A stretch of DNA of 33,303 bases, taken from IMG/VR virus record IMGVR_UViG_3300005737_000059, positions 1 to 33,303 of that record; one strand, 5' to 3'. The notes beneath the pieces were generated by a model. The model was not told the origin of the DNA. It saw nothing but the letters and a program-made list of their open reading frames with translations, and searched no databases. Numbering within the stretch: the first letter of the stretch is position 1; every line of letters starts with the position of its first letter. This document shows positions 8,740 through 30,887 of the stretch, piece by piece. Both the position numbers and the translations under genes were made by a program. Source of the DNA: a virus.

Positions 8740-10179
8740 ATGAATAAAAGTTTTAAATATCTTCCTAAAGATCAAAGGAAGAAAATACTCCTAATATGTG
8801 ATGATATTAGAGTACACTCTGGAGTTGCTACAGTGGCAAAAGAAATTGTACTGCATACATCACACCACTTTAATTGGGTACAAATGGCAGGGGCAATTAA
8901 ACACCCTGATGTTGGGAAAAGATTAGATTTATCTGAAAGTATTAATAAAGAGACAAATACATTAGACAGTTCAGTTACATTATATCCCATTAATGGTTAT
9001 GGGGATCAAAATTTAATAAGACAGGTAATAGAAATTGAAAATCCTGATGCTATATTATTAATAACGGATCCTAGATATTTTATTCATATTTTTAATATGG
9101 AAGTTGAATTAAGGAAAAAAATTCCTATTTCTTATTTAAATATATGGGATGATTACCCTGCCCCAATGTATAATAAACCTTATTATAAAGCGTGTGATCT
9201 ATTGATGGGCATTTCTAAACAAACAGTAAATATTAATAATATAGTATTAGGAGAAGATGCTAAAAATAAAGTAATTAGGTATGTACCTCATGGGTTAAAC
9301 CATAATATTTATAAACCTTTAGATAAAAATGATGAGGGATTATTAAAGTTTAAAAAAGACTTTTTTAATAATAATATACCTGAATTTATAGTATTTTTCA
9401 ATTCAAGGAATATTAGACGTAAACAAATTCCTGATACAATGTTAGCTTTTAGGGCATTTTTAGATTCACTTCCTGAAGAAAAAGCTAATAAATGTAAATT
9501 AATAATGCATACTGAAGCAGTTACTGATGCTGGTACTGATTTATATAAAGTAAAAGAATACTTTTTTGATGAAAAATACCCAAATGTTATTAAATTTTCC
9601 CATAATAAATTAGAATTACACCAACTAAATTATTTATATAATATAGCAGATGTTCAAATTCTTATTACTTCAAATGAAGGGTGGGGGCTTACTATTACTG
9701 AAGCAATTTTAGCAGGTACTCCTATTATTGCTAATGTTACTGGTGGGATGCAAGATCAAATGCGTTTTATAGATGAAAATGGAAAATGGTTTACCCCATC
9801 TCCAGAAATTCCTTCTAACCATAGGGGTACTTATAAAGAACATGGTGAATGGGCATTTCCAGTTTACCCCACTTCAAGATCAATTCAAGGGTCACCCCCA
9901 ACACCTTATATATTTGATGATAGATGTAAATGGGAAGATGTAACTAAAAGATTAATTGAGGTTTATAATTTATCTCCTGAAGAGAGACAAACTCGTGGGT
10001 TAAAGGGAAGAGAATGGGCTTTAAGTAATGAAGCAGGTTTTACAGCAGAATATCAAGCTGTTAGAGTAATGGAAGCATTTGATACTTTATTTAAAACTTG
10101 GAAACCCAGAGAAAAATATAATATCATCAATGCTACAGAATATAAAGGAAATTTTTTAAAACATAAAATATATTATTAA
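8740..10179 (+). CDS. GT-B glycosyltransferase, GT4-like
   Basis: A 479-aa two-Rossmann-domain glycosyltransferase. The N-terminal domain opens KKILLICDDIRVHSGVATVA, the glycine-loop start of GT4 acceptors, and has WDDYPAPM and VPHGLNHNIYKPL at the domain junction. The donor domain contains FFNSRNIRRKQIPD, and the nucleotide-sugar motif SNEGWGLTITEAILAGTPII with the E-x7-E pair. The sugar and acceptor cannot be deduced. The protein ends one base into the next gene (TAATG overlap), forming a tandem pair with another GT-B gene. It is the first gene of the 8.7-20.3 kb sugar island and follows the RHH gene by 12 nt. There is no membrane anchor, so it is probably cytosolic. Confidence 0.85.
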   Translation: MNKSFKYLPKDQRKKILLICDDIRVHSGVATVAKEIVLHTSHHFNWVQMAGAIKHPDVGKRLDLSESINKETNTLDSSVTLYPINGYGDQNLIRQVIEIENPDAILLITDPRYFIHIFNMEVELRKKIPISYLNIWDDYPAPMYNKPYYKACDLLMGISKQTVNINNIVLGEDAKNKVIRYVPHGLNHNIYKPLDKNDEGLLKFKKDFFNNNIPEFIVFFNSRNIRRKQIPDTMLAFRAFLDSLPEEKANKCKLIMHTEAVTDAGTDLYKVKEYFFDEKYPNVIKFSHNKLELHQLNYLYNIADVQILITSNEGWGLTITEAILAGTPIIANVTGGMQDQMRFIDENGKWFTPSPEIPSNHRGTYKEHGEWAFPVYPTSRSIQGSPPTPYIFDDRCKWEDVTKRLIEVYNLSPEERQTRGLKGREWALSNEAGFTAEYQAVRVMEAFDTLFKTWKPREKYNIINATEYKGNFLKHKIYY

Positions 10180-11456
10180 TGAGTAAACCAGTTTTTGTAA
10201 TCAGTTGCCCATTTGATACCTACTCGGGGTATGGGGGGAGATCAAGAGATTTAGTTAAAGCTATTATTGAATTAGATAAATATGATGTTAAATTAGTATC
10301 TCAAAAATGGGGGGGTACTTCATGGGGATTTTGTAAAGACCACCCAGAATGGGGATTTTTATACAATCATCAAATAAAACAACTTACTCAACGACCTGAT
10401 ATTTGGATGCAAATAACAATCCCTAATGAATTCCAACCCCAAGGAAAATATAATATTGGTTGTACAGCAGGAATTGAGGCTACAGTATGTAAACCTGAAT
10501 GGATAGAAGGATTAAATAGAATGGATGTTAACTGGGTTTCTTCTACTTTTGCTAAAGGGATGTTTGAATCTATTAGTTTTCAAAAACAAGATAAAAAAAC
10601 TAACCAAGTTATTGGGGAAATAAAAGTAGAAAAACCTATTGAAGTAATATTTGAAGGAATTAATTTAGATGTTTATAAACATTTATCCCCTAATAAAATT
10701 AAAACTGTAGATTTAAAAGGTATTAAAGAATCTTTTTGTTTTTTAAGTGTAGGACATTGGATGCAAGGAGATTATGGACATGATAGAAAAAATTTAGGGG
10801 TATTAGTAAGAACTTTTTATGAAACTTTTAAAGGATATAAATCATCAAAACCAGCTTTAATATTAAAAGCTTCTAAAGGGGTAGCTTCATATATAAGTGA
10901 ACAAGAAATTTTAAACCAAATTAAACAAATTAAAGGGACGATTAATTCTAGAAATTTACCAAATATTTACTTATTAAGTGGAGAATTTACTGATGAAGAA
11001 ATGAATGAATTGTATTACCACCCTAAAGTAAAAACAATGGTATCTTTTACTAAAGGTGAAGGATATGGCAGACCTCTACTAGAATTCAGCTTAACAGGCA
11101 AACCCGTTATAGCATCAGGGTGGTCAGGCCATCTAGATTTCTTAAAACCCAGTATGAGTACTTTATTAAATGGGGAATTAGAAAATGTTCACCCAAGTGC
11201 TGCTAATAATTGGTTAATTCAAGAGGCTCAATGGTTCAAAGTAGATATTACATCCGCTCATCGTCATTTAAAAGACTGTTACAAAAAATATAAACAATAC
11301 CAAAATAAAAGTAAACTGCAGAAAAAATTTAGTAAAGATAATTTCAATTGGGATAAAATGAAAGAGTTAATAAATAACAGCCTAACTACTAATCTTCCTA
11401 AATTTCCAAAACAAGTAGAACTTACATTACCTAAATTAAATTTACCTAAATTATAA
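10179..11456 (+). CDS. GT-B glycosyltransferase (GT4/GT1-like)
   Basis: A 425-aa protein. The start VFVISCPFDTYSGYGGRSRD is a GT4-type N-terminal loop; FEGINLDVYK marks the inter-domain linker. The donor-site region reads GEGYGRPLLEFSLTGKPVIA then SGWSGHLDFL, where the second acidic residue of the E-x7-E pair is E in LLEF. The C-terminal ~35 residues are Lys/Leu/Pro-rich repeats (LPKL-like units), an unusual tail. The gene has G-runs, including seven Gs at 10309-10315 (Trp-Gly-Gly codons). It overlaps the preceding GT by one base. Substrate unknown. Confidence 0.82.
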   Translation: MSKPVFVISCPFDTYSGYGGRSRDLVKAIIELDKYDVKLVSQKWGGTSWGFCKDHPEWGFLYNHQIKQLTQRPDIWMQITIPNEFQPQGKYNIGCTAGIEATVCKPEWIEGLNRMDVNWVSSTFAKGMFESISFQKQDKKTNQVIGEIKVEKPIEVIFEGINLDVYKHLSPNKIKTVDLKGIKESFCFLSVGHWMQGDYGHDRKNLGVLVRTFYETFKGYKSSKPALILKASKGVASYISEQEILNQIKQIKGTINSRNLPNIYLLSGEFTDEEMNELYYHPKVKTMVSFTKGEGYGRPLLEFSLTGKPVIASGWSGHLDFLKPSMSTLLNGELENVHPSAANNWLIQEAQWFKVDITSAHRHLKDCYKKYKQYQNKSKLQKKFSKDNFNWDKMKELINNSLTTNLPKFPKQVELTLPKLNLPKL

Positions 11457-11475
11457 CATATTTTACAAATAAAAA

Positions 11476-12102
11476 ATGTACCAATACTCAGAAAAATATA
11501 AATTCACACAAACTTGGTTTGATCCCTTTATCTCCCCTTGGACTAAATTGTTGACAATCCATTTAAAATCCTATCAAATTAATTCAGTCTTGGAAATAGG
11601 ATGTTTTGAGGGTAGGTCAACAGTTTTTTTAGCAGATAATTTTTTACAAAAAAATACAAATTATGACATCGTAGATACTTTTAAGGGTTCCGCTAGTGAA
11701 CCTGGAATGAAGAAGGCAACTGAGAAATTAAAAGAAAAAGATTTTATTTATGAAAATTTTCTCCATAATATTTCTTTTTTTCCCCAAATTAATTTTAATA
11801 TTAATAGAGGAATTTCACAAGAAATTTTACCTAATCTTTCTCAACAAAATAAAAAATATGATTTTATTTATATAGATGCCTCCCATAGATCAGATGATAC
11901 ATTTGTAGATGCTTATTACGCTAATAAAATGTTGAATCCTGGGGGGTTAATTATATTTGATGATTTTAGATGGAAAGATCCGACAAACTCTCATCCTATT
12001 GTTTCTCCTGAGGTAGGGATTAATGTGTTTTTTCATTTATATAATACTGAGTATAAAATAATAATGAAAGGCTATCAAATAGCAGCTATAAAAATAAAAT
12101 AA
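11476..12102 (+). CDS. Class I SAM-dependent methyltransferase (Methyltransf_24-like)
   Basis: A 208-aa Rossmann methyltransferase. SVLEIGCFEGRSTVFLAD is the SAM-binding motif I, YDIVDTFKGS the acidic motif II, YDFIYIDASHRSDDTFVDA the post-I/motif IV block with the D-A-S-H signature of this family, and LNPGGLIIFDDFRW motif VI. Members methylate sugars or small molecules; the island context suggests O-methylation of a glycan, as an inference. It is free-standing by 19 nt from the GT upstream and 1 nt from the zinc-ribbon gene downstream. Confidence 0.82.
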   Translation: MYQYSEKYKFTQTWFDPFISPWTKLLTIHLKSYQINSVLEIGCFEGRSTVFLADNFLQKNTNYDIVDTFKGSASEPGMKKATEKLKEKDFIYENFLHNISFFPQINFNINRGISQEILPNLSQQNKKYDFIYIDASHRSDDTFVDAYYANKMLNPGGLIIFDDFRWKDPTNSHPIVSPEVGINVFFHLYNTEYKIIMKGYQIAAIKIK

Positions 12103-12103
12103 T

Positions 12104-12520
12104 ATGAACTTTGATGAATTAACAGAATGTACCCGTTGTGGTTCCGATGCTTGTTACAAACAAGAAGTAACTAAAGATATTTCAATTGAGATGTGTTATG
12201 GGTGTGGTTTTCAATCCAACTCCTTAATGAAAAGTGGATCAGAATTTTTTAACGAACAATTAGAATTACTCCCCGAATTATATAAGGTATTAATGGATGA
12301 AGAAGAAGAAACTGGTAAAGTTTGGATGCCTTCTACTATTAATCTAAAAGAAAAAGGAATGGTATTTGCCGAAGGTACATCTAGAAGTAATTGGAAATGG
12401 GCAGGAGTTAAAGCTATTCCTGATGAAGAAAAAGAGTATAAAACTGATATGACTACAAAAAAACATTTTGAAGAACGTGATTTTATGGAGGCTTTATCGT
12501 ATATTGAAGTATTACCATGA
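12104..12520 (+). CDS. Zinc-ribbon conserved phage protein
   Basis: A 138-aa protein with an N-terminal zinc ribbon, C9-x2-C12 and C31-x2-C34, in ECTRCGS and MCYGCGF. The rest is acidic and contains LLPELYKVLMDEEEETGKVW and the strand-rich MPSTINLKEKGMVFAEGTS. I recall very similar proteins in T4-like cyanophages but know no function. Sitting inside a sugar island, it may be an ordinary phage gene around which sugar genes accumulated. The next gene overlaps by 4 nt (ATGA). Confidence 0.72.
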   Translation: MNFDELTECTRCGSDACYKQEVTKDISIEMCYGCGFQSNSLMKSGSEFFNEQLELLPELYKVLMDEEEETGKVWMPSTINLKEKGMVFAEGTSRSNWKWAGVKAIPDEEKEYKTDMTTKKHFEERDFMEALSYIEVLP

Positions 12521-12957
12521 GGCTAGGAGATCTAACAGAAAAATTAATATCTATAATTACCTTAGGACAAGGTAAAAAAATTGCTACTTACATAGCTAAA
12601 CTAAGAGGGAAAGAAGATTGTGGGTGTAATAAAAGAAAAACAATACTAAATAACCTAAATACTAAATCCATGTCAGTACCTGAAACATCCTTTGCCTTAG
12701 ATTGGGATAAAAAATGGCAAGAAATAAGAAGCCAAGTATCATGTGCTTGTAAATTTGATTATGCTATTTTATTAGTTAAAGATAAAATGGGAGGAGTTCT
12801 TTATGAAGAAAAATTATCTGCTGCCCCCTATATGAATGGTCAAGCAAGAAATAAAACGGTATCACTTCCTACTTTTTTTACCCCTCATTCTTATAGTTTA
12901 AAATTCCATAAAAAGGAAGAAAACGAGTTTATAAACCCCATAGAGATAGAATTATAG
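12517..12957 (+). CDS. Hypothetical protein with CGC-x-KRK motif
   Basis: A 146-aa protein of unknown function. The first ~45 residues, with LTEKLISIITLGQGKKIATY and then DCGCNKRKTILNNLN, resemble the short Cys-Gly-Cys-x-Arg/Lys motif found near the N-terminus of various phage proteins. A further C-x-C pair occurs mid-protein (SCACKF). The C-terminal half is beta-rich. The cysteines could bind zinc. It is coupled to the zinc-ribbon gene (ATGA) and its TAG shares a base with the GTG start of the next gene. Confidence 0.68.
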   Translation: MRLGDLTEKLISIITLGQGKKIATYIAKLRGKEDCGCNKRKTILNNLNTKSMSVPETSFALDWDKKWQEIRSQVSCACKFDYAILLVKDKMGGVLYEEKLSAAPYMNGQARNKTVSLPTFFTPHSYSLKFHKKEENEFINPIEIEL

Positions 12958-13580
12958 TGAAAATAAGTTATGCAATAACAGTTTGTAACGAAAAAAAAGA
13001 AGTTAAACAGTTAGTTGATTTTCTTTTACATTACAAACGTCAACAAGATGAAATAGTTGTTCTTTATGATCAAAAGAATGGTGATGAAGAAGTGATTAAT
13101 ATGCTTACTAAATTAAACAAACTTCCTAACTTCCAAGTATGGAGAGGATTCTTTGAAGGACATTTTGCTGATTGGAAGAATAAATTAACAGAATATTGCT
13201 CCGGTGATTATATTTTTCAGATAGATGCAGATGAAATTCCTAATCAAGCCTTACTAGAAAATTTACCCCTTATATTAGAACAAAACCCAGATAACGAAGT
13301 TTATTTAGTCCCTAGAATTAATACAGTAGAAGGACTAACCCAAGAACATATCAACAAATGGAGGTGGAATATTGATGATGAAGGAAGAGTCAACTGGCCT
13401 GATTATCAATGGAGAATCTGGAAAAATAAACCAGAAATCAAATGGGTTAATAAGGTACATGAAAGATTAGAAGGTTTTGAATCATATACTCTACTACCAG
13501 CCTTACATGACTTAGCTCTACAGCACCCCAAAACAATAGAGAGACAAGAAAAACAAAACTCATATTATGACACATTATAA
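12957..13580 (+). CDS. GT-A family 2 glycosyltransferase
   Basis: A 207-aa GT2-type protein. It opens with ISYAITVCNEKKEVKQLV, has EIVVLYDQKNGD, the acidic metal-binding DAD in FQIDADEIPN, and the C-terminal WVNKVHERLEGFESY signature common in this subgroup. The start is GTG at 12957, whose first base is the last base of the preceding TAG; no ATG would keep the first strand. The 3' end overlaps the dehydrogenase gene by 14 nt. Donor and acceptor unknown. Confidence 0.8.
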   Translation: MKISYAITVCNEKKEVKQLVDFLLHYKRQQDEIVVLYDQKNGDEEVINMLTKLNKLPNFQVWRGFFEGHFADWKNKLTEYCSGDYIFQIDADEIPNQALLENLPLILEQNPDNEVYLVPRINTVEGLTQEHINKWRWNIDDEGRVNWPDYQWRIWKNKPEIKWVNKVHERLEGFESYTLLPALHDLALQHPKTIERQEKQNSYYDTL

Positions 13581-14391
13581 AGTAGGAATTATAGGGAATG
13601 GTTTTGTAGGGGAATCACAATCGTTTGCTTTTTCTCCAACAAATGAGATTAGAATCTATGATGTAGACCCTTTAAAAAGTACCCATACTCTTAATGAAAT
13701 TAATGAATGTGATTTTATATTTGTGTGTGTGCCCACTCCTATGGGTAAAGATGGTTCACAAGATATATCATTTATAGATGAAGTATTTGAAAAAGCTATA
13801 GAATACCCTATCTATATTATTAAATCTACAATACTACCTGGTACTACAAAAAAACTTTCTAAGAAATACCCCCACCTTAATATAGTCTTTAGTCCCGAAT
13901 TTTTAACTGAAAGAACTGCTAAGCTAGATATGCTAACCCAAGCAAGGATTATTTTTGGGGGTAAAAAAGAAGATACAAAAAAGGTAAGAAAGTTATATGA
14001 AAATAGGTTTATGAATCGTCATATAATTGAAACCGATTCAACTACAGCTGAATTAATTAAATATATGAATAATACTTTTTTTGCAACCAAAGTTAGTATT
14101 ATAAACGAATTTAAGCTACTATCAGACAAATTAGGAACCAATTGGAAAGATGCATTGTATGGATTTGCTTCAGACCAACGTGTAAGTGATAGTCATTTAC
14201 ATGTACCTGGTCCGGATGGTAAATTAGGGTACGGTGGTACTTGCTTCCCTAAAGATGTTAATGCCCTAATTATATTAGCTAAAGAACTAAACACACCTCT
14301 TAATACAATAGAAGGGGGGTGGAAGACAAATTTAATAGTAAGGCCTGAAAAAGAATGGGAATTAGATAAGGGTAGAGCAGTAAGCGAATAA
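13567..14391 (+). CDS. UDP-glucose/UDP-sugar dehydrogenase family, short form
   Basis: A 274-aa NAD-dependent UDP-sugar 6-dehydrogenase homologue. VGIIGNGFVG (6-15) is the NAD-binding loop, VCVPTPMGKDGSQD and KSTILPGTT are family blocks, SPEFLTE matches SPEFLREG, and ELIKYMNNTF gives K165 and N169. GYGGTCFPKD (221-230) carries catalytic Cys226. The family is usually ~390-450 aa; this protein stops 48 residues after the cysteine and lacks the C-terminal UDP-binding domain. It may be a phage-specific compact form or a partly decayed enzyme. If active it would make a UDP-hexuronate such as UDP-GlcA or, using the nearby 2-epimerase product, UDP-ManNAcA. Confidence 0.82.
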   Translation: MTHYKVGIIGNGFVGESQSFAFSPTNEIRIYDVDPLKSTHTLNEINECDFIFVCVPTPMGKDGSQDISFIDEVFEKAIEYPIYIIKSTILPGTTKKLSKKYPHLNIVFSPEFLTERTAKLDMLTQARIIFGGKKEDTKKVRKLYENRFMNRHIIETDSTTAELIKYMNNTFFATKVSIINEFKLLSDKLGTNWKDALYGFASDQRVSDSHLHVPGPDGKLGYGGTCFPKDVNALIILAKELNTPLNTIEGGWKTNLIVRPEKEWELDKGRAVSE

Positions 14392-14405
14392 AAAATAGAA
14401 AAAAT

Positions 14406-15338
14406 ATGATTAAAGGAGAAAAAATCTTCATTACAGGGGGTGCAGGATATTTAGGAAAAAATTTAGTTGAAAGGTTATATAAGGATAATGAAATAACTAT
14501 TTTTTCTAGAGATGAGGCTAAACATTATTTTCTTAAAAAGAAGTTTCCAAATATTAAGTGTATTATTGGAGATGTCCGTAATTACCCCCTTTTAAAAAAG
14601 TCTTCAATTGGTCATTCTATAGGTATATTTGCTGCTTCTATTAAACATATTCAAACTGTAGATCAAAATGTTCAAGAAGGATTAGAAATTATTATTAATG
14701 GAGCGATTAATTCAAGAAAAGCAGCAGAGGAAAATAATATGAAAGCTGCTTGTTTTATATCTACTGATAAATCTAGAGCAGCTACTACTTTATATGGTTC
14801 AATGAAATTTGTAGCAGGAGAATCATTTATTGTTAATTCTGAAGATTCTTCCGTAAATTTATCAACAGCGATTTATGGAAATGTTCTTAATTCAACCGGA
14901 AGCATTATTCCCCTTATTTGGGATTCAATAAATAACAACTATCCTCTTACACTGTATTCAGATAAAATGAGTAGATTTATGATTACAATTGATGAAGCTA
15001 TAAAACTAATAGAACATAGTCTTGAAGTTAATGGGTATAATATTATTCCAAATATTAAATCATTTTTAGTAAAAGATTTATTTGAAATATATTTTGAAAA
15101 ATTCGGATTAAAATATAATTTAGGAGTCCCTCGGGTTTCAGAAAAACTCCATGAAATGATGATTTCACCTGAAGAAGTTCCAAGAACTTATTTTGATAAA
15201 AATAAAAATATATACCTTATGCATTATTCAAAACTAGCAGATAACCCTATTAAAAACGAATATGTGAGTGATAATTCATTAATAACTAAAAAAGAACTTG
15301 AAATAATATTAAAACAATATAACTATTTTACACCATGA
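14406..15338 (+). CDS. capE: UDP-GlcNAc 4,6-dehydratase/5-epimerase-like (CapE/FnlA/WbjB, PseB relatives)
   Basis: A 310-aa extended SDR of the Polysacc_synt_2 family. Motifs: TGGAGYLG (10-17) binds NADP, GDVRN (55-59) is the adenine-site aspartate, AASIKHIQTV carries the conserved K-H, STDKSRAAT gives the STDK block (119-122), and Y130-x3-K134 is the catalytic pair. Family members convert UDP-GlcNAc to a 4-keto-6-deoxy sugar, with C5 inversion in CapE and PseB. The assignment to the CapE branch rests on the adjacent CapF homologue, joined by an ATGA overlap, and on the CapG homologue 2.4 kb downstream. Alternatives are PseB-like or FlaA1-like dehydratases. It probably acts in the host cytosol. 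Confidence 0.8.
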   Translation: MIKGEKIFITGGAGYLGKNLVERLYKDNEITIFSRDEAKHYFLKKKFPNIKCIIGDVRNYPLLKKSSIGHSIGIFAASIKHIQTVDQNVQEGLEIIINGAINSRKAAEENNMKAACFISTDKSRAATTLYGSMKFVAGESFIVNSEDSSVNLSTAIYGNVLNSTGSIIPLIWDSINNNYPLTLYSDKMSRFMITIDEAIKLIEHSLEVNGYNIIPNIKSFLVKDLFEIYFEKFGLKYNLGVPRVSEKLHEMMISPEEVPRTYFDKNKNIYLMHYSKLADNPIKNEYVSDNSLITKKELEIILKQYNYFTP

Positions 15339-16381
15339 CCATAGCAATTACAGGAGAAAAGGGTTTTTTAGGGTATCATTTAACCCAATATTACAAATGG
15401 ATAAAAAAATATCAAATAATAAGTTTAGGTAAAAATTATTTAGATAATATAGGTTTATTGAGTAAATGTGATTTACTTATTCATTGTGCTGGGGTTAATA
15501 GAGGAGATTCAGTGTATGAAGGTAACATTAAATTAGCTTCGGATTTAGTTGAGGCATTAAAAAACAATAATATTAAAATAAATATTAAATTTACTTCATC
15601 AACCCAAGTTAATAAAAATAATGAATATGGGAATTCTAAATTAGAGGCAGAAAAAATACTATTTGATTATTGTACCAAAAGTAATACCCAATTAAATACA
15701 TTTTATATTCCTAATTTATTTGGTCCTTTTGGGAAACCTAATTATAATTCTTTTATTTCTACTTTTTGTTATAACCTAAACAATAATATAGAATGCAAAC
15801 ATAATACTAATTTAGTAGAATTATGCCATGTATATGATGCAATAAAAGCTATTGATTTGGATATTCCTTTTATTACTAATGATATAACTGTTGAAGATGT
15901 TTATTTAAAACTACAATCTTTTCAAGAAGACTATTCCCAAGGGATCATCCCCAACCTAACCTCTAAATTTGATCTTGATTTATTTAATACTTTTAGAAGT
16001 TATAGTAATAATCTTTTTAAATTTAAAAGACATTCAGATGATAGAGGACATTTAGTTGAACTTGTAAAAGGCAAAGGTAGTCAAACTCAAGTATTTTTTT
16101 CTACAACCAAACCAAATATAACAAGAGGTGACCATTTTCATTTTGGTAAAGTAGAAAGATTTTGTGTATTATATGGAAAAGCTTTAATTAAAACCAGAAA
16201 AATAGATTCAGAAGAAATAAATGAATATATTATTTCTGGGGATGATAATAAAGTAATTGATATGCCTGTTTTATTTACCCATAATATTACTAATGTTGGA
16301 AATGAAGATTTAATCTGTGTATTTTGGGTCAATGAAGTATTTAATGTAGATAACCCTGATACCTATTATATAAAAGTATAA
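15335..16381 (+). CDS. capF: CapF/FnlB/WbjC-like bifunctional SDR reductase-cupin epimerase
   Basis: A 348-aa two-domain protein very close in layout to S. aureus CapF (369 aa). The N-terminal SDR has ITGEKGFLG (5-13), HCAGVNRGD, Y98-x3-K102 and the strongly diagnostic NLFGPFGKPNYNSFISTFCY. From about residue 230 the cupin follows: DDRGHLVELVK, KPNITRGDHFHFGKVERF with H267 and H269, the SGDDNKVIDMPVLFTHNI strand with H316, and a C-terminus WVNEVFNVDNPDTYYIKV almost identical in pattern to CapF. CapF epimerises C3 through the cupin and reduces C4 through the SDR to give UDP-6-deoxy-L-talosamine derivatives. Both active sites look intact. Confidence 0.9.
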   Translation: MTIAITGEKGFLGYHLTQYYKWIKKYQIISLGKNYLDNIGLLSKCDLLIHCAGVNRGDSVYEGNIKLASDLVEALKNNNIKINIKFTSSTQVNKNNEYGNSKLEAEKILFDYCTKSNTQLNTFYIPNLFGPFGKPNYNSFISTFCYNLNNNIECKHNTNLVELCHVYDAIKAIDLDIPFITNDITVEDVYLKLQSFQEDYSQGIIPNLTSKFDLDLFNTFRSYSNNLFKFKRHSDDRGHLVELVKGKGSQTQVFFSTTKPNITRGDHFHFGKVERFCVLYGKALIKTRKIDSEEINEYIISGDDNKVIDMPVLFTHNITNVGNEDLICVFWVNEVFNVDNPDTYYIKV

Positions 16382-16383
16382 TT

Positions 16384-17112
16384 ATGATTACTAATTCTTT
16401 TAGAGGGGATATAGAATTTATCCATACTAAATTAAAAAATAAAGAAAAGTTTGCGTTTAGTAAATATGCTGATGGTGAATTTCGTATCTTAGCCAACCAA
16501 CATATTAATCTATTAGCCAAAGCCAATGGAGAATTTAAATACGATCCTAATGATATCAGTGATTCACTTTATAGACAAGAATTAGTCCATTCATTCCAAT
16601 ACCAACATCAAAATTATTATGTAGGGATAGGATGTAAGTGTTGTATGGGTGATACTTCTTTTAACTGGATGAAAGACAACAGTGGTCAACCCCCCCTGAA
16701 TTTAACTTGGGCTAATATATTTGTAAACGGAAATTATAAATATTATCAAAAAAATATAATTCCCCTTTATAGTAATTATGAAGTAGTAATGGTGGTAAAT
16801 CATAAAGCAAAACTAGATAGTTTACCATTTAATGTTATTAAAGACTTTAGAGTAGGTACAAATGCCTATAAAGAAGATTATAATTTGTTTAAAGAAATAA
16901 ATTATTGGGTGAATGAAAATAACATAAAAAATAAGTTATTTTTATTTTGTGCTGGACCTTATGGTAATATTTTGACTTGGAAGCTCCATCAAAATTCCCA
17001 AAATAATACTTATATAGATGTGGGTTCAACTTTAGACCCATATTTAGAGTTAGGTAAAACACGTGGTTATCTTAAAGGAGCTGATACATTAAGTAAAATG
17101 TGTATTTGGTAA
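16384..17112 (+). CDS. GT-D fold glycosyltransferase-like protein (DUF1792-like)
   Basis: A 242-aa protein. FAFSKYADGEFRIL near the N-terminus has the D-x-E motif (D30-G-E32) that marks GT-D type transferases related to DUF1792. Supporting blocks are YYVGIGC, TWANIFVNGNYKYY, and LFLFCAGPYGNILTWKLHQN followed by YIDVGSTLDPYL. In characterised GT-D enzymes the D-x-E binds the metal and nucleotide sugar. Clustered cysteines (CKCC, residues 79-82) are odd for this fold. It lies between capF and capG homologues, so it could use the FucNAc donor they make; this is inference from position only. Confidence 0.68.
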   Translation: MITNSFRGDIEFIHTKLKNKEKFAFSKYADGEFRILANQHINLLAKANGEFKYDPNDISDSLYRQELVHSFQYQHQNYYVGIGCKCCMGDTSFNWMKDNSGQPPLNLTWANIFVNGNYKYYQKNIIPLYSNYEVVMVVNHKAKLDSLPFNVIKDFRVGTNAYKEDYNLFKEINYWVNENNIKNKLFLFCAGPYGNILTWKLHQNSQNNTYIDVGSTLDPYLELGKTRGYLKGADTLSKMCIW

Positions 17113-17121
17113 AATTAAAAA

Positions 17122-17763
17122 ATGAAAGAAATGAATATTACTGGAATTGTAGGTACTTGTGATTCTTATTTGGATCTAGTTCCTAATTATATAAAATTAT
17201 TTACTAAATATAGCAGTTTAAATCCATTTCTTATTATAGGAGAAACCCAAACCCTGGAGTCCATAGAAGTTTTTACACCTGGTAAAAAACCCTGGGGAGA
17301 AAGGTTATTAAATGGATTAGAACATATCAATACTAAATATATATTATTTACTTTAGAGGATTATTATCTTCAAACTCCCATAGACTCCTATATTAAACAT
17401 AGTATAGATATTATGGAAAATAATGATCTAGATAAAATTAGTTTTATATCTAATAGCCATTTTAGAAATTATAAATTAAATCCTACTAATATTGATAATT
17501 TTTATTTAATGGATTCTGATTGTAGCTGGTTAGCTACTTTACAAATGGGGATATGGAAAACCCAAATATTTAAAGATACTTTAAAACCTTCTTATAGTCC
17601 ATGGGATTTTGAGTTTAAAGGTAGAAATTATTTGATGGATAAAAAATGTGGAGTTTTAGATCCCAATTGTGAATTAGTATTTAATTTTGCCAGAAGGGGC
17701 AAAACCCTATCTCAAGGATGGGAAGAATTTCTTAATAGTGAAAATTTAACATATAAACCATGA
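17122..17763 (+). CDS. Putative GT-A-like glycosyltransferase
   Basis: A 213-aa protein with a nucleotide-diphospho-sugar transferase-like layout. It opens with an N-terminal strand ITGIVGTCDSYLDLVPNYI, followed by the WGERLLNGLEHINTKYILF block, then an acidic ED in TLEDYYLQTPID. This places an E-D pair where GT-A enzymes have D-x-D. The C-terminal part has PWDFEFKGRNYL. Similar stand-alone phage and bacterial proteins carry LxLDDYFL in this position. No substrate can be named. It overlaps the 2-epimerase gene by 4 nt (ATGA). Confidence 0.68.
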   Translation: MKEMNITGIVGTCDSYLDLVPNYIKLFTKYSSLNPFLIIGETQTLESIEVFTPGKKPWGERLLNGLEHINTKYILFTLEDYYLQTPIDSYIKHSIDIMENNDLDKISFISNSHFRNYKLNPTNIDNFYLMDSDCSWLATLQMGIWKTQIFKDTLKPSYSPWDFEFKGRNYLMDKKCGVLDPNCELVFNFARRGKTLSQGWEEFLNSENLTYKP

Positions 17764-18743
17764 TACTATTTTGTTTTGGAACCCGGCCTGAATGGTTAAA
17801 AATAAAACCCATAATTAAACTTCTAGATAAATCCCAATATAAACTTTTATTCACGGGACAACATACGGATTTACTTAAGGATATAAAAGTAGATTACAAA
17901 ATTACTATTCCCCCACATGAAAATAGACTAGATGCTATAATTAGTGCCTGTATATTACAATTTCCTGAAGGGGAATTTGGTAGTGTATTAGTACAAGGTG
18001 ATACTGCTTCTGCCTTTGCTTGTGGTTTAGCAGCTTTTAATAGACAATTAAAAATTTATTATTTAGAAGCCGGATTACGTAGTTATGATATGCAGCACCC
18101 CTACCCAGAAGAGGCATATAGGCAAATGATTGCTCGTATTGCAGATATTAACTTTTGCCCTACAGAATTATCAGCTAAAAATTTAAAGAATGAATTAGTA
18201 CATGGTAAAATTCATGTTGTAGGGAATAGTGTATTAGATAATTTATTATCCTATAAAGATAAATGTGAATATACTAATAAAGTATTAGTTACTTTACATA
18301 GAAGAGAAAACCACCATTGGATGGGTAAGTGGTTTACTCAAATAAACCAATTAGCAATTAATAACCCAGATTTAGAATTTATTTTACCTTTACACCCTAA
18401 CCCAAAAGTTCAAAAACATAAACATCTATTAACTAATATTAAGGTTGTTAAACCCTTAACCCATTCTGAATTATTGGGTATTTTAGTAAAATCTAAATTT
18501 GTGATTAGTGATAGTGGTGGATTACAAGAAGAAGGGACATTTTTTAATAAAAAGGTAATTGTGTGTAGAAAAACAACAGAACGACCAGAAGCAATCCCTA
18601 CAGGACATTTATATTTATGTAAATCCCCTGAAGATTTATATAGCTTATTTGGAGAAATAAATCAAAATTACTATATTAATAACAAATGTCCTTATGGAGA
18701 GGGAGATACTAGTAAAAAAATAAAAAATATTATATGCATATAA
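17760..18743 (+). CDS. capG: Non-hydrolysing UDP-GlcNAc 2-epimerase family (CapG/FnlC/WbjD/WecB-like)
   Basis: A 327-aa GT-B-fold epimerase, slightly short (usual ~370-380). Motifs present: FGTRPEWLKIKP (R9, E11), QGDTAS (D81), YLEAGLRS (E103), PYPEEAYRQMI (E117/E118, R121), TLHRRENH (H180) and SDSGGLQEE (251-258) with ERPEA. All residues I know to matter for WecB-type chemistry are present. In the CapE-CapF-CapG pathway this enzyme does the last C2 epimerisation to UDP-L-FucNAc. A plain WecB role, giving UDP-ManNAc for the nearby dehydrogenase, is the main alternative. The start is ATGA-coupled to the preceding gene. Confidence 0.85.
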   Translation: MILFCFGTRPEWLKIKPIIKLLDKSQYKLLFTGQHTDLLKDIKVDYKITIPPHENRLDAIISACILQFPEGEFGSVLVQGDTASAFACGLAAFNRQLKIYYLEAGLRSYDMQHPYPEEAYRQMIARIADINFCPTELSAKNLKNELVHGKIHVVGNSVLDNLLSYKDKCEYTNKVLVTLHRRENHHWMGKWFTQINQLAINNPDLEFILPLHPNPKVQKHKHLLTNIKVVKPLTHSELLGILVKSKFVISDSGGLQEEGTFFNKKVIVCRKTTERPEAIPTGHLYLCKSPEDLYSLFGEINQNYYINNKCPYGEGDTSKKIKNIICI

Positions 18744-18814
18744 AAAATTATAATTTAGGCAACTATATAGTACCTGATAACACAAAAGGTGGAATAATAA
18801 TAATATTTAATTGA
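18734..18814 (+). pseudogene. Possible remnant of an FkbM-type methyltransferase N-terminus
   Basis: A 26-aa reading frame starting 10 nt before the end of the capG homologue contains YNLGNYIVPDNTKGG then a hydrophobic IIIIF and a stop. VPDNTKG followed by a hydrophobic strand is how many FkbM methyltransferases begin, just before their D-I-G-A-N SAM loop, which is missing here. It may be a deletion scar, a real tiny peptide or chance. The following bases up to 18830 are AT-only and hold no other gene. Confidence 0.3.
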
Positions 18815-18830
18815 TATATAATTTATTAAT

Positions 18831-19547
18831 ATGATTACAGTAATACTTAATAGCTATAAAAGAGCTACATACCTAACAGAACAAATTCAGGCAATAGAAA
18901 ATCAAACGGTTAAACCTAAGGACATAATGGTTTGGTCTAATAGACCTGAGGAAGGTAAACAGTATAATTTAGATGATTTGGGGGTAAAGGCAGCTTATGC
19001 TAATCATAACTTTAAATTTCATGCCCGATTTGCTTTTGGTCTTTTAGCTAAAACTGAATATGTAGCTTTTTTTGATGATGATACCATCCCAGGTCCTAAA
19101 TGGTTTGAAAATTGTATGAATTATTTAAAAAATGACAATTTAATTTTAGGGAGCACAGGAGTATTATTTAAAAGAGATGAGTATGATGGAGCCACAAAAA
19201 TAGGATGGAATGGTATTCATAATTCTAAATTAGAGTATGTAGATTTAGTGGGACATGCTTGGTTTATGAGAAGAAACACATTAAAATACCTTTGGGAAAA
19301 TTATCCTTTATCTTGGGATAATGGAGAAGACATCCAACTATCAGGATGGGCTTATCAATATGGAGGGATAAAAACTGCAGTTCCCCCTCACCCTAAGGAT
19401 GATGTAAGTCTTTGGGGTAGTACAAAAGGGTGGGAGTATGGGAATGATAAGAATTCTTCTTGGAGAAAAAACAACCATTTTCCCCTTAGAAACCAAATAG
19501 TAAGGGATATTATAGACCAAGGTTATATTAGAGTTGAAAAAAGATAA
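18831..19547 (+). CDS. GT-A family 2-like glycosyltransferase (DDD motif)
   Basis: A 238-aa GT-A protein. It begins MITVILNSYKRATYLTEQIQ, typical of GT2/GT64-like proteins. VAFFDDDTIPGPKW provides the metal-binding aspartates, and a GEDIQLS block in the C-terminal half is the usual ED acceptor/catalytic-base motif. DLVGHAWFMRR lies between them. There is no membrane segment. It is preceded by 87 nt with no intact gene and followed directly by the next gene (ATG right after TAA). Confidence 0.82.
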   Translation: MITVILNSYKRATYLTEQIQAIENQTVKPKDIMVWSNRPEEGKQYNLDDLGVKAAYANHNFKFHARFAFGLLAKTEYVAFFDDDTIPGPKWFENCMNYLKNDNLILGSTGVLFKRDEYDGATKIGWNGIHNSKLEYVDLVGHAWFMRRNTLKYLWENYPLSWDNGEDIQLSGWAYQYGGIKTAVPPHPKDDVSLWGSTKGWEYGNDKNSSWRKNNHFPLRNQIVRDIIDQGYIRVEKR

Positions 19548-20297
19548 ATGAAATTAGTAGTATACACTGCATTATTTGCTGATCCTGAGTTACCATTAGA
19601 AGAGGTAGGTAGATTTTTTCCATTTAAACATGAAAAAAATGATGTAAAATATATAGCATTTACAAACAGAAAGGATTTAAAATCAGATTATTGGGAAGTG
19701 CGCCATTTAGATAAATGGGATAATTATTCTTATAGAATGATGTCTCGATTTTTAAAATGGAATCCTGATAAAGCATCACTTCCCGAACATACACATTCTT
19801 TATGGATGGATTCACAATGTTATTTTAAATTTGAACCTACTGCCATAATAAATCACTATTTACAAAGTAAATACCACACGGCTATACACCATCATACTGA
19901 TTTACAAAGTGCTTATGTAGAAGGAATGGTTACATCTTATGTTTATTTTAACGATAAACCTTCTATAGTTAATAGACAGTTAGAAGGATATTTTGAAGAA
20001 GGAATGCCCTATCAATATGATCATTTTGAAACTGGTATATTAATTAGAAAAAATTGTAAAGAATCTATAAAATTATCCAATAGGATATTCACAGAATTAG
20101 AAAACAAAAGTATTAGAGACCAAATATGTACCCCTTATGTTGTCTGGAAATCCAGACAAGAGGGAGATAAGGGTATATTAACTATAAAAGAATCATTCAC
20201 CGCTCATAAGGGACAATTACCACTACCCAAATCCCAGATATTTTTTACTGAACCAAAACCTAGTGAAAAGCTTAAAGAAAACTTGGATAATCGCTAA
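19548..20297 (+). CDS. DUF616-like putative glycosyltransferase
   Basis: A 249-aa protein with the features of DUF616/TOD1-type proteins. It opens KLVVYTALFADPELPLEEVG, then has YIAFTNRKDL, a SYRMMSRFLKWNPDKASLPE block where family members keep R-x-x-K-x-x-P, and SLWMDSQCYF, the usual SxWxD metal-site element. AIHHHTDLQS resembles the family's HP.R-DC block. It probably transfers a sugar. It ends the first sugar island; a TTCGTATATT promoter box overlaps its end and starts a new unit. Confidence 0.7.
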   Translation: MKLVVYTALFADPELPLEEVGRFFPFKHEKNDVKYIAFTNRKDLKSDYWEVRHLDKWDNYSYRMMSRFLKWNPDKASLPEHTHSLWMDSQCYFKFEPTAIINHYLQSKYHTAIHHHTDLQSAYVEGMVTSYVYFNDKPSIVNRQLEGYFEEGMPYQYDHFETGILIRKNCKESIKLSNRIFTELENKSIRDQICTPYVVWKSRQEGDKGILTIKESFTAHKGQLPLPKSQIFFTEPKPSEKLKENLDNR

Positions 20298-20311
20298 AAT
20301 GTTCGTATATT
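20283..20311 (+). promoter_or_regulatory. Bacteroidetes-type promoter after the sugar island
   Basis: TTG (20283-20285), a 20-nt spacer, and TATATT (20306-20311) within an exact TTCGTATATT. The ATG at 20342 follows 30 nt later after an AAAAGGTTATAT leader. It would start transcription of the small-gene block. Good match to the TTG/TAnnTT layout. Confidence 0.6.
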
Positions 20312-20341
20312 CCATCCTAATTTTTAAAAGGTTATATATTT

Positions 20342-20701
20342 ATGCTACAGACTATTAAAAAACCAATTCAAGTGAAAATGATTCCATGTTCTAAGTGTGG
20401 TAACGATATGCCGGAACTTAGAAAAATAAAATTTGGCTATGATTTCTGTGTCCATTGTTCAGAAGGATTAAATTTAGTGGGTAAAAAACGTGCTTTACCA
20501 GTGCAAATGGGAGAAGGCGACCACTCTTGGACAGAAACCATTATCATGGAAGAAAACGAGTATCTACAGTATGAAATGATGGAAGCTATTAATTCTAAAT
20601 CTAAAAAGAAAAATAAAGCTGAAATACTAAATTTTGAATCTGAAGAAAGAAATCTTCAAGGACCTTTTAAAATCATAAATAACCCTACAGAAGAAGACTA
20701 G
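20342..20701 (+). CDS. Zinc-finger protein, DksA/TraR-like spacing
   Basis: A 119-aa protein with C16-x2-C19 and C36-x2-C39 separated by MPELRKIKFGYDF, the C4 zinc-finger spacing found in DksA/TraR-like proteins (C-x2-C-x~17-C-x2-C). It lacks the long coiled coil of DksA. The rest contains MGEGDHSWTETIIMEENEY and a charged C-terminus. It may touch host RNA polymerase or simply be structural; neither can be shown here. It heads a transcript from the promoter at 20283-20311 and lies 2 nt before the HNH-like gene. Confidence 0.68.
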   Translation: MLQTIKKPIQVKMIPCSKCGNDMPELRKIKFGYDFCVHCSEGLNLVGKKRALPVQMGEGDHSWTETIIMEENEYLQYEMMEAINSKSKKKNKAEILNFESEERNLQGPFKIINNPTEED

Positions 20702-20703
20702 TT

Positions 20704-21321
20704 ATGCCCAAACCAAAACCATTATCAAAAGAAATGATAGTGGCGGCTCAAGCAAATACTAAATCAAATATGGCCGCTAGCAGGTACTTGCATGTTTCTT
20801 ATCAACATTATAAGAGATATGCTAAGTTATATGGTTTGTTTGAAGACCATAAAAATCAAAGCGGTAAAGGTATACCCAAATTTTTAAAAGGTAAAGGCAA
20901 AGAACCCGCTCTTTTGGATATAATTGAAGGAAGAGTATCAGCCGCTCATTTTACTCCTGCAAAAATAAAGTATCGTTTAATAGAAGCTGGATATTTATTA
21001 GAGCAATGCTCAATGTGTGGTTTTCAAGAACGACGGGTACTAGATTATAAAATGCCCTTATTGTTGCACTTCAAAGATAATAACAAGTCTAATTATAGTA
21101 AAGAAAATATAGAATTACTATGTTATAACCACTATTTCCTTACAGTAGGGGATATTTTTACTGAAAAGGATGTAAAACAAATTGAGTCACATCAAGAACA
21201 TCATGGCACAAGTGAAAAAATTGAATTTGAAGTAGATGATTACCACTTACAGCGCCTAAGAGAATTAGGATTAGCAGATGATGATGAAGATGATGTTAAC
21301 CAATATATTTCAAGAATATGA
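20704..21321 (+). CDS. HNH-endonuclease-like protein with N-terminal helix-turn-helix
   Basis: A 205-aa protein. Residues ~10-45 (IVAAQANTKSNMAASRYLHV followed by YQHYKRYA) look like a helix-turn-helix. The C-terminal half has C102-x2-C105 (CSMCGF), then LLLHFKDNNKSNYSKENIEL with H122 and N135, and C140-x2-H143 in LLCYNHYF. This follows the HNH order (H-x-N...N-x3-LC-x2-H) though the first element differs from a typical HxDGNxxNN. It may be a free-standing homing-type nuclease or a repurposed DNA-binding protein. An acidic tail ends the protein. Confidence 0.65.
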   Translation: MPKPKPLSKEMIVAAQANTKSNMAASRYLHVSYQHYKRYAKLYGLFEDHKNQSGKGIPKFLKGKGKEPALLDIIEGRVSAAHFTPAKIKYRLIEAGYLLEQCSMCGFQERRVLDYKMPLLLHFKDNNKSNYSKENIELLCYNHYFLTVGDIFTEKDVKQIESHQEHHGTSEKIEFEVDDYHLQRLRELGLADDDEDDVNQYISRI

Positions 21322-29219: not shown

Positions 29220-30887
29220 ATGAATAATAAAAAACTTACGTTTCATGTGTTAGGTTTACCCCATACAATAACAAGTAAAGAATTTGTTGCATGTGCTTAT
29301 ACTCAAAAAGCATGGAAATTTTGTAAAATGATGGGTGAGAGGGGTCATACCATATACCACTACGGACATGAAGACAGTAATGCTCCTTATGCTGAAAATA
29401 TTACAGTTATTACAAATAAAGTATGGAAAAAAGTATATGGCACTCATGATTATAAAAGTAAACTTTTTACATACAATGTTCAAGATGAAGCATACCAAAC
29501 CTTTTATAAAAATGCTATAAAAGAAATAAGTAAAAGAAAACAAAAAAATGACTTTATACTCCCATTTTGGGGTTCAGGTGTTAGACCTATATGTGACGCT
29601 CACCCAGATCTTATAACAGTAGAACCTGGAATTGGTTATGCAGCGGGGCATTGGGCTAATTGGAAAATATTTGAATCGTATGCTATATACCATGCTTATT
29701 GTGGGTTGGAGGCAGTAGGAACATGCAAACAAAATAACTATGATGTTGTTATACCTAACTATTTTGATTTAGATGAATTTGAATTTAACGATAAAAAAGA
29801 AGACTATTTCTTATTTTTAGGTAGAGTATATGATGGTAAAGGAGTAAACATAGCTATACAAGCTACAGAACACTTAGGGTATAAATTAAAAATAGCAGGA
29901 CAAATAGACGATAATGGGCCTTACGCCCACAAAACTTTCCCACCCCATGTAGAATTTGTTGGGTATGCTGATGTAGAAAAAAGAAAAGAATTAATGAAAA
30001 ATGCCAAAGGATCATTTTTAGCATCTCAATATGTAGAACCCTTTGGTGGTGTGCAAATTGAAAATTTGTTATGTGGAACCCCTACAATAACTTCAGATTG
30101 GGGGGCATTTACTGAAAATAATATTAATGGTGTTACAGGTTATAGATGTAGAACATTTGATGATTATTTACAAGCAGCAATAAAAATTAAGAATGGAGAT
30201 ATTGATTATAAAACTTGTAGGGAACATGGTGAAAAGTTTTCATTAGAATCTATAGCTCCTAAATATGAAAAATTTTTCCAAGATGTATTAAATGTATATG
30301 AAAGTAATGGGTGGTATAAAACAGAAATACCTAGAGGAAAAACTGATGACTTCAATTATGAAGCAATGGATGAAGAAGAAAGACCCTTTTCTATTAATTT
30401 AGCCAAATGGATTAAAAAACATTTTAACCCTTCAGAAGCTATAGATATAGGATGTGGTTCTGGTCTTTATGTAAATTCACTTAGGGATCAAGGGATATTA
30501 GCTTATGGATTTGATATTAATCCTATTGTTAAAGATAAAGATTATCTACATGAACAAAGTATTTTTGATATAGACCACCCCTCAGAATTAATTATTTGTT
30601 TAGAAGTAGCAGAACATATAGAAACTAAATTTAATGATGAAATAGTAAAAAGTTTATATAACAATTTAAAACCTGGGGGGACATTAATTTTTACAGCAGC
30701 ATTTCCAGGCCAACAAGGAATAGGTCATATTAATTGTCAACCCAAAGAATATTGGGAAAACAAATTTAGTAATTTAGGATTAGTTAGAAATTTAGAAGCA
30801 GAAAATAATTGGGATAAAAATATGTCCCAAAAACAACATATGGGGTGGTTTAGAATTAACAAATTAATTTTCACTAAAAATGTCTAG
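29220..30887 (+). CDS. Fusion: GT4-like glycosyltransferase plus SAM methyltransferase
   Basis: 555 aa with two catalytic modules. Residues 1-~360 are a GT-B transferase: N-terminal LTFHVLGLPHTITSKEFVAC, VEPGIGYAAGHW, then the donor domain FLFLGRVYDGKGVNIAIQAT, and YVEPFGGVQIENLLCGTPTI with the E-x7-E pair (E273 and E281). Residues ~385-555 are a class I methyltransferase: AIDIGCGSGLYVNSL (408-421), FDIN, CLEVAEHIE and LKPGGTLIFTAAF. The fusion suggests a sugar is added and then methylated, or that one product feeds the other. There is no anchor or signal peptide. It overlaps the next gene by 8 nt. Confidence 0.85.
   Translation: MNNKKLTFHVLGLPHTITSKEFVACAYTQKAWKFCKMMGERGHTIYHYGHEDSNAPYAENITVITNKVWKKVYGTHDYKSKLFTYNVQDEAYQTFYKNAIKEISKRKQKNDFILPFWGSGVRPICDAHPDLITVEPGIGYAAGHWANWKIFESYAIYHAYCGLEAVGTCKQNNYDVVIPNYFDLDEFEFNDKKEDYFLFLGRVYDGKGVNIAIQATEHLGYKLKIAGQIDDNGPYAHKTFPPHVEFVGYADVEKRKELMKNAKGSFLASQYVEPFGGVQIENLLCGTPTITSDWGAFTENNINGVTGYRCRTFDDYLQAAIKIKNGDIDYKTCREHGEKFSLESIAPKYEKFFQDVLNVYESNGWYKTEIPRGKTDDFNYEAMDEEERPFSINLAKWIKKHFNPSEAIDIGCGSGLYVNSLRDQGILAYGFDINPIVKDKDYLHEQSIFDIDHPSELIICLEVAEHIETKFNDEIVKSLYNNLKPGGTLIFTAAFPGQQGIGHINCQPKEYWENKFSNLGLVRNLEAENNWDKNMSQKQHMGWFRINKLIFTKNV

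What the first reader, a model, noticed from the sequence alone, without database searches (positions are those of the whole stretch)
14406..18743. Phage-encoded CapE/CapF/CapG set for UDP-N-acetyl-L-fucosamine
Three genes match, motif for motif, the enzymes that convert UDP-GlcNAc to UDP-L-FucNAc: the SDR dehydratase/epimerase, the SDR-cupin CapF (diagnostic KPNYNSF and C-terminal WVNE...NPDTYY), and the 2-epimerase. Catalytic residues are intact in all three. Complete nucleotide-sugar pathways of this type belong to bacterial capsule and O-antigen loci; having one in a T4-like replicon, interleaved with two glycosyltransferase genes, suggests the phage builds a FucNAc-containing glycan on its virion or on the host surface.
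Basis: partly seen in the sequence, partly recalled or inferred. Interest (0 to 1): 0.8.

Follow-up and report, generated by a model that had tools for sequence, protein, structure and literature searches.

The report
Phage rare-sugar cassette, not FucNAc
A virus of bacteria carries enzymes that should turn a common cell sugar into a rare 6-deoxy amino sugar, but the third enzyme of the claimed three-step pathway belongs to a different enzyme group and a different gene cassette, so the virus probably makes L-pneumosamine and N-acetylmannosamine rather than L-fucosamine.

Summary
CapF (15335-16381) is sound. The other two are not CapE and CapG proper. The dehydratase is an inverting type from a viral clade with a Tyr active site (36/36 viral; 78 of 79 bacterial partners of CapF have Met); it should still feed CapF. 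The 2-epimerase is WecB/MnaA-type: tree support 100/100, AU test against CapG p=0.0024, no CapG motif. Linkage agrees: 78/80 bacterial CapF loci carry CapG, but none of 18 other viral CapF records holds any 2-epimerase, and none of 14 records with the window's 2-epimerase type holds a CapF cupin. Five of those show nearly the window's cassette without CapE-CapF. The window is a mosaic of two modules. Most likely CapE+CapF stop at UDP-L-pneumosamine (6-deoxy-L-TalNAc), and the 2-epimerase separately makes UDP-ManNAc. UDP-L-FucNAc would need a host CapG or a changed specificity. Products and the glycosylated target are untested. Virus-encoded 6-deoxy-L-HexNAc synthesis is known from Megavirus; this is a new variant.

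The parts
13567..14391 (+). short nucleotide-sugar dehydrogenase (UDP-Glc/GDP-Man DH family, 274 aa, no C-terminal domain match); edge of the backbone cassette
   Evidence: PF03721+PF00984 only, TIGR03026 174 bits, below its cut-off; next to p16384 in L131-L134 and L139, 69-76% identical
14406..15338 (+). [quoted passage not shown]
   Evidence: PF02719 3e-41; best PDB match 4tqg = Megavirus Mg534; residues equivalent to CapE D125, K126, K138, E257 kept, M134 is Tyr; tree
15335..16381 (+). CapF-like bifunctional enzyme: N-terminal SDR 4-reductase plus C-terminal Zn-cupin 3-epimerase
   Evidence: PF14667 2e-43; PDB 2zkl/3st7 CapF 3e-62 over full length; Y98, K102, H267, H269, E274 kept
16384..17112 (+). 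glycosyltransferase, GT-D (DUF1792) fold, partner of the 2-epimerase
   Evidence: AF2 model pLDDT 70; Foldseek top three all DUF1792 glycosyltransferases, prob 0.99/0.99/0.93, next hit 0.15; present in 13 of 14 other records with the 2-epimerase
17122..17763 (+). 213-aa protein, unidentified; one homologue at 39% in L127
   Evidence: no family at useful E-value, no PDB match; L127 homologue
17760..18743 (+). compact WecB/MnaA-type UDP-GlcNAc 2-epimerase (predicted product UDP-ManNAc)
   Evidence: tree 100/100 with WecB; AU against CapG p=0.0024; WecB state in 19, CapG in 4 of 42 diagnostic columns
18831..19547 (+). family-2 glycosyltransferase, same cassette as the 2-epimerase
   Evidence: PF00535 1e-8; present in 14 of 14 other records with the 2-epimerase
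19548..20297 (+). TOD1/MUCI70-type glycosyltransferase, same cassette
   Evidence: PF04765 8e-11; 71-77% identical in L131-L134, L139

Best explanation
The stretch is a mosaic of two independent nucleotide-sugar modules in the variable glycan slot of a T4-like phage. Module 1 (CapE-like + CapF): the dehydratase takes UDP-GlcNAc to the 4-keto-6-deoxy-L sugar by 4,6-dehydration and C5 epimerisation; the CapF cupin epimerises C3 and its SDR domain reduces C4 with NADPH, giving UDP-2-acetamido-2,6-dideoxy-L-talose (UDP-L-pneumosamine), where the phage pathway stops. Module 2 (WecB-type 2-epimerase + GT-D + GT2): UDP-GlcNAc to UDP-ManNAc. Phage glycosyltransferases without membrane segments then place these sugars, most likely on virion proteins. 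Shown here: gene content, residues, phylogeny, linkage. Inferred: both products, and the acceptor.
For: CapF is full length with its active sites kept. The dehydratase keeps the residues matching CapE D125, K126, K138 and E257, and its best solved relative, Mg534, has shown activity (PMC9614988). CapF's product before CapG is UDP-L-TalNAc (PMC5393024), named UDP-PneNAc in pneumococcus, where serotype 5 uses it (PMC4838161). The 2-epimerase groups with WecB, 100/100, and AU rejects CapG, p=0.0024. 0 of 18 other viral CapF records hold any PF02350 and 0 of 14 2-epimerase records hold PF14667, against 78/80 bacterial CapF loci with CapG. L131-L134 and L139 show the backbone cassette without CapE-CapF. 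CapE and CapF have the lowest GC of the 16 genes at 8740-21321, 26.8% and 25.1%, as a later insertion would. No TM-like segment in the cassette genes and no Wzx/Wzy-like protein seen.
Against: No assay. The phage 2-epimerases sit on a long branch (2.26) and 19 of 42 diagnostic columns match neither type, so a changed substrate cannot be excluded. The 18 viral CapF records are mostly fragments, so a CapG could lie outside them, though one is 349 kb and one 126 kb without any PF02350. A host with CapG could finish the pathway; the host is unknown. The 4-reduction stereochemistry of this CapF is inferred from homology at about 36% identity.
Confidence: 0.62

Rival explanations
1. One reading: the three enzymes form one pathway to UDP-L-FucNAc, the WecB-type enzyme having taken over the CapG step.
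For: All three genes lie within 4.3 kb in one direction; the 2-epimerase is intact and diverged from typical WecB, so a new substrate is possible.
Against: It groups with WecB and not CapG; its 64-72% relatives occur in 14 records without CapF, so its function does not need CapF; viruses that carry a C2 epimerase for 6-deoxy-L sugars carry the CapG type.
Confidence: 0.13
2. The phage supplies UDP-L-pneumosamine and a host CapG converts it to UDP-L-FucNAc; CapE-CapF only boosts a host pathway.
For: CapE-CapF-CapG operons are common in Bacteroidota, and the phage GroEL is nearest to Flavobacterium phages (59%), which fits such a host.
Against: The host is not known; such a host would already have its own CapE and CapF, which makes carrying just these two hard to explain.
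Confidence: 0.17
3. The dehydratase feeds another product, such as the 4-keto sugar used directly or UDP-L-RhaNAc/QuiNAc as in Megavirus.
For: The same dehydratase clade is followed by an RmlD-like reductase instead of CapF in 16 of the loci fetched with it; the best PDB match is Megavirus Mg534.
Against: In the window no RmlD-like gene follows and CapF is complete; CapF and a dehydratase are adjacent in 17 other viral records.
Confidence: 0.05
4. The genes are decaying passengers without function.
For: Hypervariable slot; in some other viral CapF proteins the SDR Tyr/Lys pair is lost.
Against: In the window all catalytic residues and reading frames are intact, and all three have conserved relatives in other viruses.
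Confidence: 0.03

Closest known systems
CapE/CapF/CapG (FnlA/B/C, WbjB/C/D), UDP-L-FucNAc synthesis
   Same: CapF has the same architecture and active sites; a dehydratase adjacent to it performs the expected first step
   Different: Dehydratase is Tyr-type and outside the FnlA clade; no CapG-type 2-epimerase; in a phage
Megavirus chilensis Mg534/Mg535/Mg536 (UDP-L-RhaNAc/QuiNAc)
   Same: Virus-encoded synthesis of a UDP-6-deoxy-L-HexNAc starting with a Tyr-type inverting dehydratase; virion fibrils carry the sugars (PMC9614988, PMC10117803)
   Different: Mg535 (270 aa) is RmlD-like, and Mg536 is about half identical to WbvD/WbjD, i.e. CapG-type; the window uses CapF and a WecB-type enzyme; giant virus of amoebae, not a phage
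Pneumococcal serotype 5 capsule (UDP-PneNAc, the FnlB product, used as a capsule sugar)
   Same: The predicted CapE+CapF product is used there as a building block (PMC4838161)
   Different: Serotype 5 also has FnlC and makes FucNAc
WecB/MnaA UDP-GlcNAc 2-epimerase
   Same: Catalytic residues, EAGLR..PxPEE pattern, tree position
   Different: About 50 residues shorter, long branch, linked to a GT-D gene in phages

Membership tests
CapE/FnlA subfamily (PMC3699295: MxxxK active site and latch) | Met in place of the SDR Tyr (MxxxK) | tested here: not met
   Window has YGSMK; 36/36 viral Tyr, 78 of 79 bacterial Met, one not read
CapE/FnlA subfamily (PMC3699295: MxxxK active site and latch) | Latch loop 287-309 | tested here: inconclusive
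   Loop of similar length in the aligned columns, but the conserved R[IV]PADxRDLNY segment just before it is missing
CapE/FnlA subfamily (PMC3699295: MxxxK active site and latch) | Groups with FnlA in a tree; high TIGR04130 score | tested here: not met
   Own viral clade, 100/100, apart from FnlA; 104 bits, where S. aureus CapE itself scores 559 (cut-off 730)
Inverting UDP-GlcNAc 4,6-dehydratases (FlaA1/PseB/Mg534 kind) | SDR with the D, K, Y, K residues | tested here: met
   STDK...YGSMK; D, K, Y, K and E257 equivalent kept
Inverting UDP-GlcNAc 4,6-dehydratases (FlaA1/PseB/Mg534 kind) | Inverting 4,6-dehydration in vitro | not testable with these tools
   no assay
CapF/FnlB/WbjC | N-terminal SDR plus C-terminal cupin in one chain | tested here: met
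   PF01370 at 3-175 and PF14667 at 233-344; full-length match to 2zkl
CapF/FnlB/WbjC | Y/K of the SDR and His/His/Glu of the cupin | tested here: met
   Y98, K102, H267, H269, E274
CapF/FnlB/WbjC | NCBIfam NF047837 over its curated cut-off | tested here: not met
   222 bits against 500: a diverged relative; the cut-off is a naming threshold of one library, not a functional feature
CapG/FnlC/WbjD | Groups with CapG in a tree | tested here: not met
   Groups with WecB 100/100; AU p=0.0024
CapG/FnlC/WbjD | EAGNR[CS]FDxxVPEE signature | tested here: not met
   Window EAGLRSYDMQHPYPEE; signature in all 26 CapG rows
CapG/FnlC/WbjD | Linked to CapF | tested here: not met
   Relatives of the window's enzyme never with CapF, 0 of 14 records; the window itself is the sole juxtaposition
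WecB/MnaA UDP-GlcNAc 2-epimerase | Tree position and catalytic D, E, E, H | tested here: met
WecB/MnaA UDP-GlcNAc 2-epimerase | TIGR00236 over cut-off | tested here: inconclusive
   222 against 210 bits, but S. aureus CapG scores 250 too, so the model does not separate the two
WecB/MnaA UDP-GlcNAc 2-epimerase | UDP-GlcNAc/UDP-ManNAc interconversion | not testable with these tools
   no assay

The most novel reading that the evidence does not exclude
A group of uncultured phages has a shortened pathway, CapE plus CapF without CapG, that ends at UDP-L-pneumosamine and decorates the virion with it; and related phages keep the dehydratase while exchanging the downstream reductase (CapF against RmlD-like) and epimerase, switching the stereochemistry of their surface sugar as a form of surface variation.
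Probability: 0.3. Interest if true: 0.65.

Novelty: new variant of a known kind. Interest (0 to 1): 0.42.

Why it matters
It corrects a pathway call that annotation by best family name would repeat: the NCBIfam wecB model rings for both WecB and CapG, so only the tree, the signature and linkage separate them. It also shows that uncultured phages carry several versions of 6-deoxy-L-HexNAc synthesis (dehydratase + CapF; dehydratase + RmlD-like, with or without CapG; Met-type dehydratase + separate cupin + CapG). If the products are as predicted, phages build rare surface sugars from exchangeable modules, which could be tested with four or five purified proteins.

Tried and rejected
(1) Pseudaminic acid: I first read the genes after the dehydratase in L004-L006 as possible PseC/F/I from their lengths; the sequences show a methyltransferase-like protein and an RmlD-like reductase instead, so this was dropped. 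(2) NCBIfam wecB (TIGR00236) as a discriminator: useless, it rings for CapG too. (3) Phage isolates: no CapE+CapF pair in INPHARED except two unannotated 'Staphylococcus phage' records that hold the S. aureus capsule locus, evidently host DNA; I used that locus as a reference only. (4) AF2 model of the 2-epimerase is weak (pLDDT 66, TM 0.4), though its Foldseek hits are all 2-epimerases, WecB/MnaA types on top; not used as main evidence. (5) Reductase swaps on the dehydratase tree: 4 changes, bootstrap 3-4, but firmly supported branches force only 1 and shuffled labels do about as well, so repeated swapping is suggested, not shown. (6) Latch of CapE: alignment in that loop is too loose to decide. 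(7) Rfam and tRNA scans empty. (8) Papers on phage-borne UDP-FucNAc pathways: none found in the held library; absence there is not proof.
Full report
OBSERVATION. The ORFs are where the finding says: 14406-15338, 15335-16381 and 17760-18743, all +, intact, with 16384-17112 and 17122-17763 between CapF and the epimerase. Neighbouring genes overlap or nearly touch. The replicon is T4-like: polymerase C-terminus, clamp loaders gp44 and gp62, GroES/GroEL, ThyA. G000 is a 33.3 kb virus record; IMGVR_UViG_3300005733_000032 (L001) is the same virus or its copy and not independent. GroEL is nearest to Flavobacterium phages at 59%, and the gene starts lack obvious Shine-Dalgarno sites, which fits a Bacteroidota host; this is inference.

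CAPF IS SOUND. It has the SDR and the C-terminal cupin, matches S. aureus CapF over its full length, and keeps Y98 and K102 of the SDR and H267, H269 and E274 of the cupin. The 222-bit NCBIfam score against a cut-off of 500 says it is diverged.

THE DEHYDRATASE IS CAPE-LIKE BUT NOT CAPE. CapE was defined as a subfamily by MxxxK and a latch loop (PMC3699295). The window and all 36 readable viral homologues have Tyr (a few of the 36 are the same contig fetched twice); 78 of 79 bacterial dehydratases in CapF loci have Met, one was not read. In the tree the viral proteins form clades of their own, apart from FnlA. Best solved relative: 4tqg, Mg534 of Megavirus (identity of 4tqg from PMC10117803), an inverting 4,6-dehydratase/5-epimerase with shown activity. 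FlaA1, also Tyr-type, is likewise inverting, so CapF's substrate should be made.

THE 2-EPIMERASE IS WECB-TYPE. It has EAGLRSYDMQHPYPEE; all 26 CapG rows have EAGNR[CS]FDxxVPEE. The tree puts it with WecB at 100/100, and the AU test rejects a clade with CapG, p=0.0024. Of 42 diagnostic columns it has the WecB state in 19, the CapG state in 4. Caveat: long branch, and 19 columns with neither state. PDB matches: MnaA/WecB types first, CapG (7ya2) far below.

LINKAGE. In bacteria 78 of 80 CapF loci carry a CapG-type gene; the two exceptions are L089, a 3.5 kb contig, and L069, whose CapF my ORF picker did not keep and whose genome has a WecB-family gene close by. In viruses, whole-record searches found no 2-epimerase of any type in 18 other CapF records (Fisher p 9e-18 against bacteria, a comparison of kinds of record rather than of independent samples) and no CapF cupin in 14 other records with the window's 2-epimerase type. 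In those 14 the 2-epimerase lies near GT18831 in all and next to p16384 in 13. L131-L134 and L139 read dehydrogenase, p16384, 2-epimerase, GT18831, GT19548: the window's order without CapE, CapF and p17122. One of the 14 (L127) does hold a PF02719 dehydratase and a p17122 relative, but no CapF. CapE and CapF also have the lowest GC of the genes at 8740-21321. The window thus joins two modules.

OTHER VIRAL VERSIONS. CapG-type genes do occur in viruses: 77 IMG/VR loci. Forty-five have a Tyr-type dehydratase and an RmlD-like reductase; eight have a Met-type dehydratase and a separate 122-125 aa CapF-type cupin; L198 has a Met-type dehydratase and a CapF cut by the contig end, possibly bacterial DNA. 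So viruses that use a C2 epimerase beside such a dehydratase use the CapG type, which speaks against the window's WecB-type enzyme as a stand-in.

MECHANISM. CapE-like and CapF should give UDP-L-6dTalNAc, the product before the CapG step (PMC5393024), called UDP-PneNAc in pneumococcus, where serotype 5 uses it as a capsule sugar (PMC4838161). The WecB-type enzyme should give UDP-ManNAc. p16384 is a GT-D glycosyltransferase by fold. No membrane assembly protein was seen among the cassette genes, so soluble glycosyltransferases acting on phage proteins are more likely than a capsule or O-antigen; the acceptor is unknown.

NOVELTY. Virus-encoded 6-deoxy-L-HexNAc pathways are known from Megavirus (PMC9614988). 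A phage CapE-CapF pair without CapG is, as far as the held library and INPHARED show, not described: a new variant of a known kind.

Noticed in passing
L114-L124 (CapF at about 10001-11065; L120 3318-4394): Nine viral CapF proteins keep the cupin His/His/Glu but have lost the SDR Tyr and/or Lys (for example YGQWR, FGVYR, NGNQR): possibly only the C3 epimerase remains.
   Followed up: partly
L010 9262-9906: CapF-like protein with only the SDR half (214 aa), no cupin, followed by the RmlD-like reductase.
   Followed up: no
L200-L202, L209-L211, L213, L214: Stand-alone CapF-type cupin of 122-125 aa next to a Met-type dehydratase and CapG in viral contigs: a split CapF.
   Followed up: partly
L004-L024, about 210-250 aa after the dehydratase: Family of short RmlD-like reductases with an invariant Cys (GTDC/SSDC) before YxxSK, where GDP-fucose synthase has its epimerising Cys (by recall); Pfam hardly sees it.
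   Followed up: partly
13567-14391; also L002, L008, L022, L131: Nucleotide-sugar dehydrogenase of 265-290 aa without a match to the C-terminal domain, conserved in many of these phages.
   Followed up: no
19548-20297: Phage protein matching TOD1/MUCI70, a glycosyltransferase-like domain known from plants.
   Followed up: no
29220-32457: A second glycosyltransferase pair outside the slot, one fused to a methyltransferase-like domain as read by eye.
   Followed up: no
OR849864.1, OR844989.1: INPHARED 'Staphylococcus phage' records hold the S. aureus capsule locus: host DNA in a phage collection.
   Followed up: yes
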